From Tetradesmus obliquus (lineage: Eukaryota; Chlorophyta; Chlorophyceae; Sphaeropleales; Scenedesmaceae): a stretch of 64,000 bases of DNA. Position 1 is the stretch's first letter. Each line of letters begins with the position of its first letter. The DNA is taken from the NCBI GenBank assembly GCA_030272155.1, contig CP126199.1:3832501-3896500 (forward strand). Reading direction: 5' to 3'. The notes under the pieces were generated by a model. That model did no database searches. It was given only the letters and a program-made list of their open reading frames with translations, and had not been told where the DNA came from. Both the position numbers and the translations under genes were made by a program. Below are positions 54,526 through 63,500 of the stretch, piece after piece.

Positions 54526-57500
54526 TCACTCCTGCGCCTTGCGCGACACCTTCCAGCGCACCAGCAGCAGCACCAGCAGCCGGCAGACCAGCCCCAGACC
54601 AAACAGCACCGCAAACGCCGTCCACTTCTGAGGCCCACACTCCTGCGCCAGCAGCTGCGGCCTGCTCTGGAACTGCCAGAGCTGCGTCAGCGCAGCAACA
54701 GCAGCAGCAGCAGACTGCTCGGCGCTGCTGCTGCCGGCCGCAGTGCTGTTGCGGTACGCGGCGGCTGCGGCGGCTGCCATTGCGTCCGCGCGCTGCGCGC
54801 TGCGCATGGCGGCCCAGTCGAGCACGTTGGAGTCCTCAGCAGCTGATGAGTTGCTGCTGTCTGCAGCAGCAGCAGCAGCAGCAGCAGCAGCAGCAGCAGC
54901 AGCAGCAGCAGCAGCAGCAGCAGCAGCAGCAGCAGCAGCAGCAGCAGCAGCAGCAGCAGCAGCAGCAGCAGCAGCAGCAGCAGCAGCAGCAGCAGCAGCA
55001 GCAGCAGCAGCAGCAGCAGCAGCAGCGATGCCCGCAGTGAGAAAGCTACAACGCGCTGCATGCACCAGAAGCACATAGCAGAGGGCCAGCAGCAGGCAGT
55101 GATAGCACAATCTGCAGCAAACCAACGCGCGCCGCGCTGCCAGCAGCCCGCCAACCCCCTGCCCCTCCTACCCTGTCACCACCCCTCGCGCTCACCTCCT
55201 GCACTGAAAATGGCAGCCTTTGCTTCGCCCCCCTGCTCCGCCTTCTCCACACAAGGTGTCCCCACCGGCCCACCACCCCTCTGCCCTGGCACCCCTTGCA
55301 GCCCACCGCTTTTCCCCCGCCCTCACCTCCTGCATTCAAAATAGCAGCCAGGGCCCGTGCCCTATCATCCGCCCCACCCTCAGACGAGCCAGACTGCAGT
55401 GCCGCCAGCAGGCGCGGGTCCAGGCCGCAGTAGCCCAGCTGCGCCAGGAAGGCAGCTGTGGCTGGCGCGGCCTCGGGGCTGGCCGGCACCAGCCAGCTTA
55501 TGTACAGCGCCTGCAGCGCCCACCTGCGTCAAATGACACGTTACATAACACAGCGGCAAGGGGCGTTAGCGGGCACCAGCGGGCACCAGCCAGCTTATGT
55601 ACAGCGCCTGCAGCGCCCACCTGCACAAAATGACACGTTACATAACACAGCAGCAAGCGGTGTCAGCGGGCACCAGCCAGCTGATGTACAGCGCCTGCAG
55701 CGCCCACCTGCAGGGGCAGTGGTGCATGTGGTGGGCAGGAACATCCGAATTGCATGTCAAGTTGCCGGCTGATGCACAGTGCCTGCAGAGCCCACCTGCA
55801 GTGGTCAGCATGCGCAGAAAGGGCAGAGCAGATGCACTGCCAGATGCGTTGTGTGCATGCCAAAGTCGGCACCCTCGCCATGCAGTGTCAACACGCACAG
55901 CACGGCCCTGTCGATAATACAGCCTGCACATTGAGGCAGCAAAAGTCACAAAGCTTTAGTTGATTCGCACTGCATCAGCACGCACCTGGTGTAGCTGATG
56001 TGATTGAGCCAGGCCAGGGGGTTGGCTGGCGCGGGGCTGCAACAAATGATGTAGTTGCTATAGTAGCTGGACCAGACAGTGGGCCTCGCACCTGGTGTAG
56101 CTGATGTAGTTGAGCCAGGCCAGGGGGTTGGCCAGAGGCAGCTGCCACATATTTGGTGCCACGCCGTTGGCCACGCCGCCCAGCAGCAGGGCCACAGCAA
56201 GGCCAGCCACCAGCGACTGCTTGGGAGCGATAGACAGCGACACCTGGCGGCGGCAGCAGCAGCAGCAGCAGGCAGCATGCAGCATGCAGCATGCAGGTGA
56301 CAAGTTGGGTCTGCCAGTGGCATTGCTTGGATGGCTGGGCGTCTGCCGAACCGTCCAGCAGCTACAAGCATGCACATGCTACTAGCAGCAAGAAGCAGAC
56401 TCTTCAGGCAGCCCAGGCCCACTGCTGGCTGCAGTACCAAGCGGCCCCTGCGTGCACTGCTGCCAGCTGCGTTCAGCCCCCAGCTGCCCCCAGCCCCCAG
56501 CTGCCAGCAGCCCAATGTACTCACCAGGTACCCCAGGCCGCTGGTGTACCAGCCCACCAGCGCCAGGCTGCTGAGTAAGTAGCGGCTGATGTTGCTACAC
56601 CCTGCTCAACCTCCAGAACCCTGAAACCCTAAAACCTCAGCGGCAGCCCCTCACCAAGTATCCCAGGCCGCTGGTGTACCAGCCCACCAGCGCCAGGCTG
56701 CTGTAGTAGGTGCCTGCGCTCACGCTAGGCAGCGTGAGCACCCCTAAACCCCAATCCTACAGCTTTATACCCTGAGTTACACCTCACTCACCAGGTAACC
56801 CAGGCCGCTTGTGTACCATCCCACCAGCGCCAAGCTGCTGTAGTAGGTGCCCACATGCACTGATGACACGTGGCCCAGAAACCTAAACCCTACACCCCCA
56901 AACCTTAGACCCTATGCTACACCTCACTCACCAGGTACCCCAGGCCGCTCGTGTACCATCCCACCAGCGCCAAGCTGCTGTAGTATGTGGCCGCGCTCAC
57001 ACTGGGCAGTATGAACACCCCCTAAACCCCAACCCTACAGCTTCAAACCCTGAGCTACACTTCACTCACCAGGTAGCCCAGGCCGCTTGTGTACCATCCC
57101 ACCAGCGCCAGGCTGCTGTAGTAGGTGCCCGCGCTCACACTGGGCAGCGTGAGCACGTACAGCCACGCAAACATGAGCGCAGGCGCCAGCAGCAACCCCA
57201 GCAGGTCAAACAGCTGGTGGCCTAGCACCCAGGCTGTGACGCTCACGCCGCCCTGCGGCAGCGGCAGCAGCAGGAGCAGCAGCAGCAGGAGCAGCAGCAG
57301 CGGTGTCAGCAGCCCCAGCAGGTCAAAGAGCTGGTGACCTAGCACCCATGCCGTGACGCTCACGCCGCCCTGCGGCAGCAGCAGCAGCAGCGGCAGCAGC
57401 CCCAGCAGGTCAAACAGCTGGTGGCCCAGCACCCAGGCTGTGACGCTCACGCCACCCTGCGGCAGCGGCAGCAGCAGCAGCAGGTCTCAGCAGCCGCATG

Positions 57501-60500: not shown

Positions 60501-63500
60501 AGCCCTCATACGCCAGCTCACCAAAATACAAGCATCCTGCAGACGTAGACCAATCAGCACTTACACAAGCAAGCAACATATGTGCTGGAAGCGCAATAAC
60601 AAAACCAAATGACACACAGCATATCACACACCTTTGTCAGCCAGTCGCGTAGGCCGGCCTCAGCCCAAAAGCCCAGGAAGCCCTCATACGTCAGCACACT
60701 GTCATCACCACCCCCATCATTGTTAGTGCCTGCCACATCGCCCATGGCCTGCCCAACACCCGCAAGGCCGCCCCTCACAGCGCCGCTGCTGCTGCTGAGG
60801 CGCCGTTGGCGCTGCACTTTTGCCGCTGCTGCTGCTGCATTGGCTTTGCTGTCAACCAGCAGGGAGAACTTGGAGCGCAGGGCTTGCAGATCTCGTGGCC
60901 TCCAGGGCCAGTCGATGGGTGTGGCTGGCGGCTGTGCTGCGGTGAGGGCCTGCAGCAGCAGCTCCTGCTGCTCCGGCGGCTGCTGCTGCTGCTGACTGAC
61001 CCTGCGGCAGTTGCGGAAATTGGTTGTTGTTACAAAGTTGATGCTAACAGCTTGTACATGTCGACATCAGACCAGCTTACGCAGACATGCTGTTTGCACT
61101 GCAATCAACACCAGGCCATGCACAACAAGCCATGTGCATGTTGTGTTGCTTAATGACTGCTGCTGCTGCTGCTGCTGGCTGTGGCCTCACCAGATGTCGC
61201 CGCAGCGCTTCCACAGCGCAGCCAGCTCTGAGGGGATGAAGTCGGCATCACCAGGCCGCGACACCACGCCTGCGGCAGCAGCAGCACACATGCATAATAT
61301 ACATGATGATGATGACTGTTGGGTGTGCCAGGTGCTGCCACATACGTTCAATCTTTGACTTGCCGTTGACTGATGATACTCTCACACCTGCCATCGCATA
61401 ACATTGCAGTCTATTGCCCACTGGCACACCACATCCTCTCAGACATTCTCTCACCTACCGTTCATCCAGACATCCAGCAGGAAGTGTGCTGCATCCTATC
61501 CGGGTAGCGAAAAGAGGTCCCGCCACCCGGGAGAAGTTCAGGAAGGCTACACAGGACAGTGCAGGCGCTGCTACACTGAACCACGTCCTCTCCATTATGT
61601 ACAAAAACATTCTCTCACCTGCCGTGACATCCAGCAGAAGTCTGCCGCGTTCTCTCCGGGTGGAGGGAAGAAGCCCAGGAAGGCTACGTAGGGCAGCGCC
61701 AGGTGCTGCTACACTAATCACGTCCTCTCACCTGCCGTCATGTAACAAACCATTCTCTCACCTGCCGTGACATCCAGCAGGAAGTCCGCCGCATTCTCTC
61801 CGGGTGGAGGGAAGAAGCCCAGGAAACCCATGTAGGGCAGCGCCTGGTGCTGCCACACAACGCCTTCTTCTCACCTGCCGTCATATAACAAACCATTCTC
61901 TCACCTGCCGTGACATCCAGCAGGAAGTCTGCCGCATTTTCCCCGGGCGGCGGGAAGAAGCCCAGGAAAGCCATGTAGGGCAGCGCCAGGTGCTGCGGGC
62001 CGGCATACGCCACGTGCCCGCCGCCGCTCAGCAGCAGGCAGCTGTCAAACATGTTGAAGATGGAGCACCTGGCGCAGCAGCAGCAGCAGCAGCAGCAGCA
62101 GGTTGAAGCATGCTGCATTGCTCGGACATCCATGATGCTACCTCTGTTTGCTTGTAGGGCCAGGCGTGCTTGTCAGCCACAGATGCAGGCAAGAAGCAAG
62201 ACAAACAGCACACACAAGCCAGCAGTGACTTACACCCAACGCGTTCTGCAGCAGCCGCAGCCGCCGCCGCTTCAGCAGCAGCAGCACCTGCCTAAAAAAA
62301 AACCTCGCACCTGGGCTGGTGCATCACCGCGATCACGTTCATGCCGCGTGCCGCGCTCTGCTTCAGTGCGCCCACCACATCAGCCGCCACGGCAGCATCC
62401 AGCCCGCTGGTGGGCTCGTCCAGCCACAGCAGGCAGGGCCGCGCCACCAGCTCCACACCGATCGCGGCGCGGCGGCGCTGCCCGCCACTAACAAAGCGCT
62501 GGCTGGCGCAGCCCACCACCTGCATGGGAACAAGTGCAAGCAGAAGCAAGCAGAAGCACATGTGTGAGGTGGGTGTTGAGCTGGCTCCGCTGATCAAGCG
62601 CAGCCCACCACCTGCGGTGTGAGGTGGGTGGGTGGAGCAACATGTATGTGGGCTCATCCAGCCACAGCAGGCAGGGCCGCGCCACCAGCTCCACACCAAT
62701 TGCGGCGTGGCGGCGCTGCCCGCTGCTGACAAAGCGCTGCCCGCTGCTGACAAAGCGCTGCCCGCTGCTGACAAAGCGCTGCCCGCTGCTGACAAAGCGC
62801 TGCCCGCTGCTGACAAAGCGCTGCCCGCTGCTGACAAAGCGCTGGCTGGCGCAGCCCACCACCTAGGTGGAAGCAGACATGCGGCCGGCAGAGGCATATC
62901 TGTGAGATGGTTGTTTGACGGGCCCCCTCTGACAGGGTGCTGGCTGGCGCAGCCCACCACCTGCGTGCAATCACGTGGCACGCAGCAGCATAGATGCAAG
63001 ACAGGCTGCTGCTGTGCCCGCCACTGACGAAGCGCTTGCTGGCGCAGCCCACCACCTGCAGGTTGTGCAATCACAACGTGGCGGCGGTGATGGTGGTGGT
63101 GCGGCAGAGGCGCATGTGTTGCTTGCCGTGACACCTGCTGCTGTCGTGTGTGACAGTGCTATGTAGAGCCACTTGTGGCAGGGTGTGGTAATCAAGTGTG
63201 GGCAATGCAACCCAGCACAGAGGCGCAAACAGGCAAGCTGCCCCAAGCATCAGCAATGGCCGTGCAACGTTTGAAGCAGGTAGGACAGCAGCGAGCAGGC
63301 AGTGAGTGCAGCATGCCAAGGAGGTAGCAAATGCAGCTGCTGCAACCACTCACCTGGTGCTGCACATTGCTCAGTGCCATCAGCGTCAGCACCTCATCCA
63401 CGGCTGCCTGCACCTCACGCGAGCGTGCACGCAGGTGCACACGCTTGCCCCCGGATGCACTCCTGCTGCCGCTGCTGCTGCTGATGCCCTGAGCACCAGC

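What the first reader, a model, noticed from the sequence alone, without database searches (positions are those of the whole stretch)
55188..63062. Splice-junction-anchored tandem duplications in almost every ABCG intron
Segments spanning an exon-intron boundary are copied one to four times into the adjoining intron. Donor-edge copies always lie downstream of their exon and acceptor-edge copies always upstream, so each copy keeps intron and exon parts in the original order. Exons 3, 4, 6/7, 7, 8, 9 (both ends), 10 and 11 (both ends) are affected. Most copies preserve GT or AG and remain open. This looks like a systematic process (replication slippage, or duplication with the splice site as a breakpoint) creating tandem alternative splice sites. 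I know of no standard feature class for it.
Basis: partly seen in the sequence, partly recalled or inferred. Interest (0 to 1): 0.85.

Follow-up and report, generated by a model that had tools for sequence, protein, structure and literature searches.

The report
Exon-edge tandem duplications swelling algal introns
In this probable green-alga genome, pieces of DNA that straddle exon-intron borders have been duplicated head to tail into the neighbouring intron over and over, making introns longer; the pattern is real and recurs in many loci, but it looks more like the visible remains of ordinary short tandem duplications than a new splicing device.

Summary
In the ABCG gene, 8 of 11 introns (11 of 22 junctions) carry direct copies of an exon edge, mostly with its splice site. 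Copies there are about 4-28% diverged, so an assembly artefact is unlikely. Other loci have them too: among 232 introns of a 284-kb, mostly ABC-gene sample, donor-edge copies occur in 33 and acceptor-edge copies in 23; inverted copies 0 and 0, copies in unrelated introns 0 and 0. Unselected stretches show some, and a paralogous ABCG gene has its own arrays.

Most likely mechanism: recurrent short direct duplication; 35 of 62 nearest copies lie 90-160 bp away. Duplications across one junction are harmless and survive. Intron-derived halves erode faster than exon-derived halves, so mainly exon edges stay recognisable; simulation reproduces most of the apparent anchoring. Copies look neutral by codon position. 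'Donor copies downstream, acceptor copies upstream' follows from any head-to-tail duplication across a junction.

Unexplained: narrow unit length, strong unevenness among loci, a residual shortage of intron-only duplications, and unexpectedly strong acceptors in the copies.

The parts
62311..62519 (-). ABCG exon C (nucleotide-binding domain, SGGQ to DEPTSGLD) with copied acceptor edge
   Evidence: ATGCAG|GTGGTG ... GCCCAG|GTGCGA
62648..62864 (-). acceptor-edge copy of exon C upstream of it, itself holding a 21-bp x 6.3 perfect array (62713-62844)
   Evidence: 92% over 62410-62501
62923..62990 (-). acceptor-edge copy of exon C
   Evidence: (79%)
63005..63060 (-). acceptor-edge copy of exon C
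   Evidence: 87.5%
61905..62068 (-). ABCG exon D with copied donor edge
61762..61853 (-). donor-edge copy 1 of exon D (93% over the last 81 nt)
61619..61709 (-). donor-edge copy 2 of exon D (one-base deletion)
61469..61520 (-). donor-edge copy 3 of exon D, decayed (77%)
60480..60521 (-). copy of the end of exon F (60632-61001); stops 26 nt before the donor
   Evidence: 86%
60324..60379 (-). acceptor-edge copy of exon G (58264-60240)
   Evidence: 86%
60441..60472 (-). second, partial acceptor-side copy of exon G
   Evidence: 94%
58140..58203 (-). donor-edge copy of exon G
   Evidence: 94%
57562..57668 (-). donor-edge copy of exon H (57737-57871) with intron part; a further fragment near 57515-57545 seen by eye
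   Evidence: (72%)
57307..57372 (-). acceptor-edge copy of exon I (57070-57252)
   Evidence: 92%
57393..57483 (-). second acceptor-edge copy of exon I
   Evidence: 96%
56519..57018 (-). array of four donor-edge copies of exon I, spacing 130-140 bp
   Evidence: (D10, D13)
55981..56047 (-). donor-edge copy of exon J (56092-56243)
   Evidence: 85%
55579..55800 (-). three acceptor-edge copies of exon K (55327-55523)
   Evidence: (D14)
55183..55218 (-). donor-edge copy of exon K
   Evidence: 86%
20457..20498 (+). acceptor-edge copy of the predicted exon that starts at 20570 (another gene)
39086..39131 (-). donor-edge copy of the predicted exon that ends at 39204 (another gene)

Best explanation
The genome undergoes frequent short direct duplications, usually with 90-160 bp between the starts of successive copies. 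Such an event inside an exon breaks the protein and is removed. One that spans a single exon-intron border leaves one intact exon edge with a working splice site and drops the extra edge into the intron, so it is tolerated and lengthens the intron. Once there, the extra edge drifts. Its exon-derived part lies opposite a conserved exon and is itself less indel-prone than intron sequence, so it stays recognisable; the intron-derived part soon does not. Longer exon copies are purged, perhaps because they can be taken for an exon. Further unequal exchange between copies makes arrays. SHOWN: direct-only copies, lengths, near-neutral codon pattern, faster divergence of intron-derived parts, longer introns. 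INFERRED: the initiating lesion (staggered or paired breaks filled in and end-joined), the reason for the depletion of long copies, and neutrality in the cell.
For: Direct copies in 33 and 23 of 232 introns; inverted 0 and 0; other introns 0 and 0. First-order spacing: 35 of 62 at 90-160 bp, 1 of 62 below 90. The intron part of the unit is also homologous (p<0.05) in 17 of 31 pairs, including 4 of the 5 with exon parts over 95% identical. Codon-position mismatches 108:95:208 in 65 pairs. Between two intronic copies, exon-derived parts differ 11.7% with 1.5 gaps per 100 columns, intron-derived parts 24.1% with 11.4 gaps. Paralogue exons with four-fold divergence 0.11-0.38 have poorly alignable introns. 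With intron decay x2-x3 the simulation gives 20-25% intron-only hits and a median aligned donor intron part of 1-5.5 nt. Introns with copies: median 488 against 293 bp, p=1.5e-14. Exon parts over 75 nt: 7 of 51, against 44-57% in simulations. A same-size duplication outside predicted genes exists: L013 3197-3481, offset 138, 99%.
Against: Even with faster intron decay the model predicts 20-25% intron-only duplications; observed are 9 intron-only introns against 54 junctions, and six of the nine are short-period arrays. Several pairs with 90-95% identical exon parts show no significant intron homology, which suits an insertion flanked by direct repeats better. Acceptors of copies are as strong as real ones although their flanks differ at 3.57 of 12 positions. 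Young pairs show an excess of third-position differences (26:24:82). In the C13 paralogues L030/L033 the copy differs at 2 of 48 sites, the spacer at 8 of 95 and the exon at 1 of 48: too few sites to prove neutrality. The narrow unit length and the unevenness among loci (permutation p=0.0002) are not explained.
Confidence: 0.6

Rival explanations
1. Exon-intron borders are true mutational hotspots: some feature of the junction (base-composition step, R-loop, nucleosome edge, co-transcriptional splicing) makes breaks there, so junction-spanning duplications arise more often than others. (The odds of the readings overlap: this one concerns where events start, the next what form they take.)
For: Observed 39 junction against 6 intron-only cases where equal decay predicts 1,424 to 1,133; a residual shortage of intron-only cases remains after faster intron decay; exon part narrowly distributed, KS p=5e-5 before gene-model repair. 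The window ABCG gene and its C14 paralogue both carry copies at the exon C acceptor, D donor, F end and G acceptor.
Against: Most of the excess is reproduced by differential decay; the exon-part distribution is roughly flat from 15 to 75 nt and then cut off. L032 has copies at further junctions too, so the overlap with the window gene is weak evidence and was not tested for chance.
Confidence: 0.2
2. The primary event is an insertion of about 70 bp of filler flanked by a 30-90 bp direct repeat of the exon edge (staggered break, both ends filled in, filler joined in). The copy with its trailing sequence is then the original splice site.
For: Repeat length 58+-16 and spacer 70+-22 bp in 34 pairs; spacers unrelated to each other; ext 72822, L015 778 and L016 7995 have sharp ends with 95-97% identity and no significant trailing homology, though in L015 only 15 nt are exon; copy splice sites as strong as real ones. 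Daphnia neointrons show a short-repeat version of this footprint (PMC4202315, passages).
Against: 17 of 31 pairs show homology in the intron part. The last copies in the C13 family resume the intron start of the real donor (by eye). The two spacers searched genome-wide have no match outside their own locus or a local paralogue.
Confidence: 0.25
3. The copies are functional splice sites or decoys kept by selection, for instance for regulated unproductive splicing.
For: GT/GC kept in 34 of 38 and AG in 26 of 28 filtered copies; acceptor score at -12..-4 copy 1.87, real 1.48, random intronic AG -2.10, above the neutral simulation.
Against: Donor copies do not beat neutral expectation over +1..+6 (p=0.195); GT and AG positions mismatch about as often as neighbouring exon positions; near-neutral codon pattern. 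CTG-rich tracts end like the acceptor consensus T-G-C-A-G, so strong acceptors may arise by composition (inference).
Confidence: 0.08
4. Assembly artefact.
For: A few copies are identical or nearly so to their exon, e.g. one exon-D copy in L032 over 81 nt.
Against: ABCG copies are about 4-28% diverged with unique spacers; the feature occurs in many loci on several contigs; two paralogues share one copy with three diagnostic differences.
Confidence: 0.01

Closest known systems
[quoted passage not shown] Gao and Lynch 2009; Hellsten 2011)
   Same: Short direct tandem duplication inside a gene that involves splice sites
   Different: There an exonic AGGT segment is duplicated and a new intron arises between the two copies (PMC3443670, passages). 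Here the duplicated segment spans an existing border and an old intron grows. Gao and Lynch and Hellsten were seen only as entries in that paper's reference list; the Rogers name is recalled.
Small tandem duplications at staggered breaks (CST-Pol alpha-primase fill-in in mammalian cells; patch-mediated and paired-nick duplications in plants)
   Same: Direct, homology-independent duplications of tens of base pairs; a plausible source of the mutations
   Different: Shown in mouse and human cells (PMC8355091, passages); the plant work (Vaughn and Bennetzen 2014, Schiml 2016) is recalled, not read. I know of no report that it favours exon edges or a unit near 125 bp.
Neointrons with direct repeats in Daphnia
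   Same: Direct repeats of exon ends inside introns, ascribed to staggered breaks
   Different: Exon-end repeats there are 4-12 bp and mark new introns (PMC4202315, passages); here about 14-110 nt of exon in introns that need not be new.
Tandem exon duplication and mutually exclusive exons
   Same: Tandem duplication in genes with copied splice sites (recalled)
   Different: Here exon edges are copied; the listed copies mostly lack the other exon end (by eye). L016 7940-7994 is an exception: the whole 55-nt exon is copied.
Introners
   Same: Intron sequence added on a genomic scale
   Different: Introners are mobile elements (PMC9860276, start of abstract in a listing); here spacers form no family.

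Membership tests
Tandem (direct) internal gene duplication | Copies lie next to each other in the same orientation | tested here: met
   33 and 23 of 232 direct, 0 and 0 inverted
Tandem (direct) internal gene duplication | The whole unit, intron part included, is duplicated | tested here: inconclusive
   17 of 31 pairs with p<0.05; the others lack it
Intron gain by tandem duplication (AGGT model) | A new intron is bounded by two copies of one exonic AGGT, so the intron end resembles the upstream exon end | tested here: not met
   Donor-edge copies lie mid-intron with further intron after them; not checked exhaustively for every intron
Tandem exon duplication / alternative exons | Copy has both an acceptor and a donor, and conserved coding sequence | tested here: not met
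   Opposite ends of copies mostly lack AG or GT (by eye); codon pattern near neutral; L016 7940-7994 excepted
Introner / mobile element | A dispersed sequence family | tested here: not met
   No spacer-spacer matches among 34; two spacers searched genome-wide match only themselves or a local paralogue
Break-repair tandem duplication | De novo origin at staggered breaks, end-joining dependence | not testable with these tools
   Needs mutation-accumulation lines or repair mutants

The most novel reading that the evidence does not exclude
Exon-intron borders in this lineage are mutational hotspots for a duplication process with a characteristic period near 125 bp and about 50 nt of exon, acting repeatedly on junctions of particular genes and their paralogues and driving intron growth there.
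Probability: 0.2. Interest if true: 0.75.

Novelty: new variant of a known kind. Interest (0 to 1): 0.45.

Why it matters
It offers a concrete record of how introns lengthen: in this sample 52 of 232 introns carry recognisable remains of exon-edge duplications, and their median is 195 bp longer. It is also a trap for gene prediction: 26 copies had been called exons by my own gene finder. Whether new duplications favour splice junctions can be tested directly in a fast-growing alga. If the hotspot reading is right, it would link splicing or chromatin at junctions to a mutation process.

Tried and rejected
Segment boundaries fixed at the splice site: the similarity seemed to stop near intron +6, but intron parts are homologous in about half the pairs and simulated faster intron decay gives a similar picture. 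Equal-decay null kept as a bound, then replaced. Upper cut-off of the exon part: partly due to copies mistaken for exons; after relabelling 26 of them it remained. Gene conversion from exon to copy: in the C13 paralogues the copies share three differences from the exon, so that copy was not fully converted since the split; not excluded elsewhere. Age gradient along arrays: not seen in the exon-I array, whose farthest copy is 94.5% identical to the exon over 55 nt. Spacers as mobile elements or imported filler: no family, no outside source for the two tested. Selection on copies. First gene-finder training collapsed into micro-exons and was discarded. A chance estimate for junctions shared with the C14 paralogue was dropped because exon correspondence upstream of exon A is unsure. 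Organism: not identified; a 39-aa Rubisco small-subunit piece found no PDB match; 'green alga' rests on the Rubisco small-subunit hits and on the CAG-rich genome habit as I recall it. Literature searches listed no description of this pattern in the held open-access library; most subscription papers are not held, and Gao and Lynch 2009 could not be read.
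Full report
WHAT IS THERE. The window lies on contig C9 of a 104.7-Mb genome in 17 contigs; its GC is 58%. A manual exon model from exon A (63949-64231) to exon L (54526-54860) has GT and AG at all eleven introns. Direct copies of exon edges lie in 8 of the 11 introns, at 11 of 22 junctions: exon C acceptor (three main copies and a longer one), exon D donor (three), exon F end, exon G acceptor, exon G donor, exon H donor, exon I acceptor (two), exon I donor (four), exon J donor, exon K acceptor (three), exon K donor. 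The only other clear non-CAG repeats closer than 1 kb in the window, at 20457 and 39086, also span an exon edge in other genes.

HOW GENERAL. I wrote a small self-trained gene finder, because no annotation exists. It gave a donor consensus MAG|GTGAGT and a TGCAG|G acceptor. Applied to the window with a 9.8-kb extension, 18 further 10-kb loci (17 chosen for ABC domains, one flank) and three unselected 10-kb stretches, it yields 232 introns with two well-supported neighbours. Direct copies of the donor edge occur in 33 introns, of the acceptor edge in 23; inverted 0 and 0; in an unrelated intron 0 and 0; on the wrong side 3 of 188 and 5 of 188. With a full self-alignment on the final model, 62 of 464 junctions in 52 introns. 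Without ABCG: 27 and 19 of 221 introns. The three unselected stretches each contain at least one case, although only two of their junctions pass the test. The sample leans to ABC genes, and loci differ strongly: L020 and L021 are riddled, while L013, L014, L017, L019 and L023 have none (permutation p=0.0002).

ANATOMY. The nearest copy starts 90-160 bp from the exon edge in 35 of 62 cases, 161-260 in 21, over 260 in 5, under 90 in 1. The exon part averages 53 nt and exceeds 75 nt in 7 of 51 cases with an exon of at least 110 nt, against 44% to 57% in simulations of random placement. Breakpoints inside exons look sharp and arbitrary. Introns with copies are longer, median 488 against 293 bp. 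The intron part of the unit is homologous in 17 of 31 testable pairs. Some arrays share their spacers, as head-to-tail arrays do.

EVOLUTION OF COPIES. In 65 exon-copy pairs the mismatches by codon position are 108:95:208: a neutral copy beside an exon that changes mainly at third positions. Pairs with under 12% mismatch lean further to third positions (26:24:82), which I cannot fully explain. Unit lengths show no frame preference (14/21/19, from the list). Splice dinucleotides in copies mismatch about as often as nearby exon positions. Donor strength is as neutral decay predicts (p=0.195); acceptor flanks differ more than expected yet keep full strength, against a simple reading. Composition may be the cause; this is inference. 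In the C13 paralogues a copy shared by two genes keeps three old differences from the exon; between the two genes the copy differs at 2 of 48 sites, the spacer at 8 of 95, the exon edge at 1 of 48.

IS THE JUNCTION SPECIAL? Any head-to-tail duplication across a border puts donor copies downstream and acceptor copies upstream, so the side rule is no evidence. The real question is why intron-only duplications are rare. With equal decay, simulated 130-bp duplications give nearly as many intron-only as junction hits (1,133 to 1,424); observed were 6 to 39, or 9 to 54 after repairing gene models. But intron-derived sequence erodes faster: between two intronic copies of one edge, exon-derived parts differ 11.7% with 1.5 gaps per 100 columns, intron-derived parts 24.1% with 11.4 (unrelated baseline 29.7% and 16.6, and some of the trailing segments compared may be unrelated). 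Paralogous genes with four-fold divergence of 0.11-0.38 have introns that mismatch at 0.53-0.93 without gaps, although gapped alignment still beats shuffles (z 4-7) and exon conversion between those genes could contribute. With two- to three-fold faster intron decay the simulated intron-only share falls to 20-25% and the aligned donor intron part to a few bases, close to what is seen. A residual deficit remains (9 of 63, or 14%), and long exon parts are depleted. I therefore favour survival plus ascertainment over a junction hotspot, without excluding the latter.

PARALOGUE. The exon-D edge copy used as query finds six matches on C14; the locus L032 is a diverged ABCG gene with seven exon-D edges at 126-134 bp spacing, eleven copies, original included, of the acceptor edge that leads into the Walker A exon, and copies at exons B, C, F and G. 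Exon-D edges group by gene, not across genes (100/100), so the arrays arose or were homogenised separately. Four junctions have copies in both genes, a hint of recurrence that I did not test for chance.

KNOWN OR NEW. Tandem duplication as a source of introns is established (PMC3443670, passages), and short duplications at staggered breaks have a worked-out route in mammalian cells (PMC8355091, passages). Daphnia neointrons carry short exon-end repeats (PMC4202315, passages). My searches of the held library listed no paper that describes recurrent exon-edge duplication across a genome, but coverage is partial. I class it as a new variant of a known kind.

LIMITS. Copies mistaken for exons were relabelled by rule (26 cases), which affects counts.

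Noticed in passing
window 54863-55026: A perfect (GCA)n run of 164 bases just upstream of the predicted last ABCG exon; it would read as polyalanine if translated. Whether it is coding is open.
   Followed up: no
window 58264-60240: Exon G carries a long low-complexity insert (Gln/Ala/Ser rich, several hundred residues) between the nucleotide-binding and membrane parts of the transporter.
   Followed up: no
window 43805-46991 and 48631-52141: A tandem pair of related segments about 5 kb apart, 71-89% identical in pieces.
   Followed up: no
window 53436-53603: An inverted repeat: arms 53436-53497 and 53542-53603, 62 nt, 92% complementary, 44 nt apart.
   Followed up: partly
window 62713-62844: A perfect 21-bp x 6.3 array that grew inside an exon-C copy, not in the exon itself.
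   Followed up: partly
ABCG exon starts, window 55523, 56243, 62068, 62519, 63626: Five of twelve listed exons begin with GTG directly after AG, so acceptors read AG|GTG like donors; possible recursive sites or old tandem-duplication introns.
   Followed up: no
L032 8781-9775: Eleven occurrences in 1 kb of the acceptor edge of the Walker A exon of the C14 ABCG paralogue, 76-98% identical to the exon edge, set among CTG repeats.
   Followed up: partly
L014 / L015: Paralogous genes whose exons differ widely in divergence (four-fold 0.11 to 0.38) while all seven introns align poorly, suggesting exon conversion or fast intron turnover.
   Followed up: partly
L013 3197-3481: A 99% identical 138-bp-offset tandem duplication outside predicted genes, same size class as the exon-edge units.
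   Followed up: no
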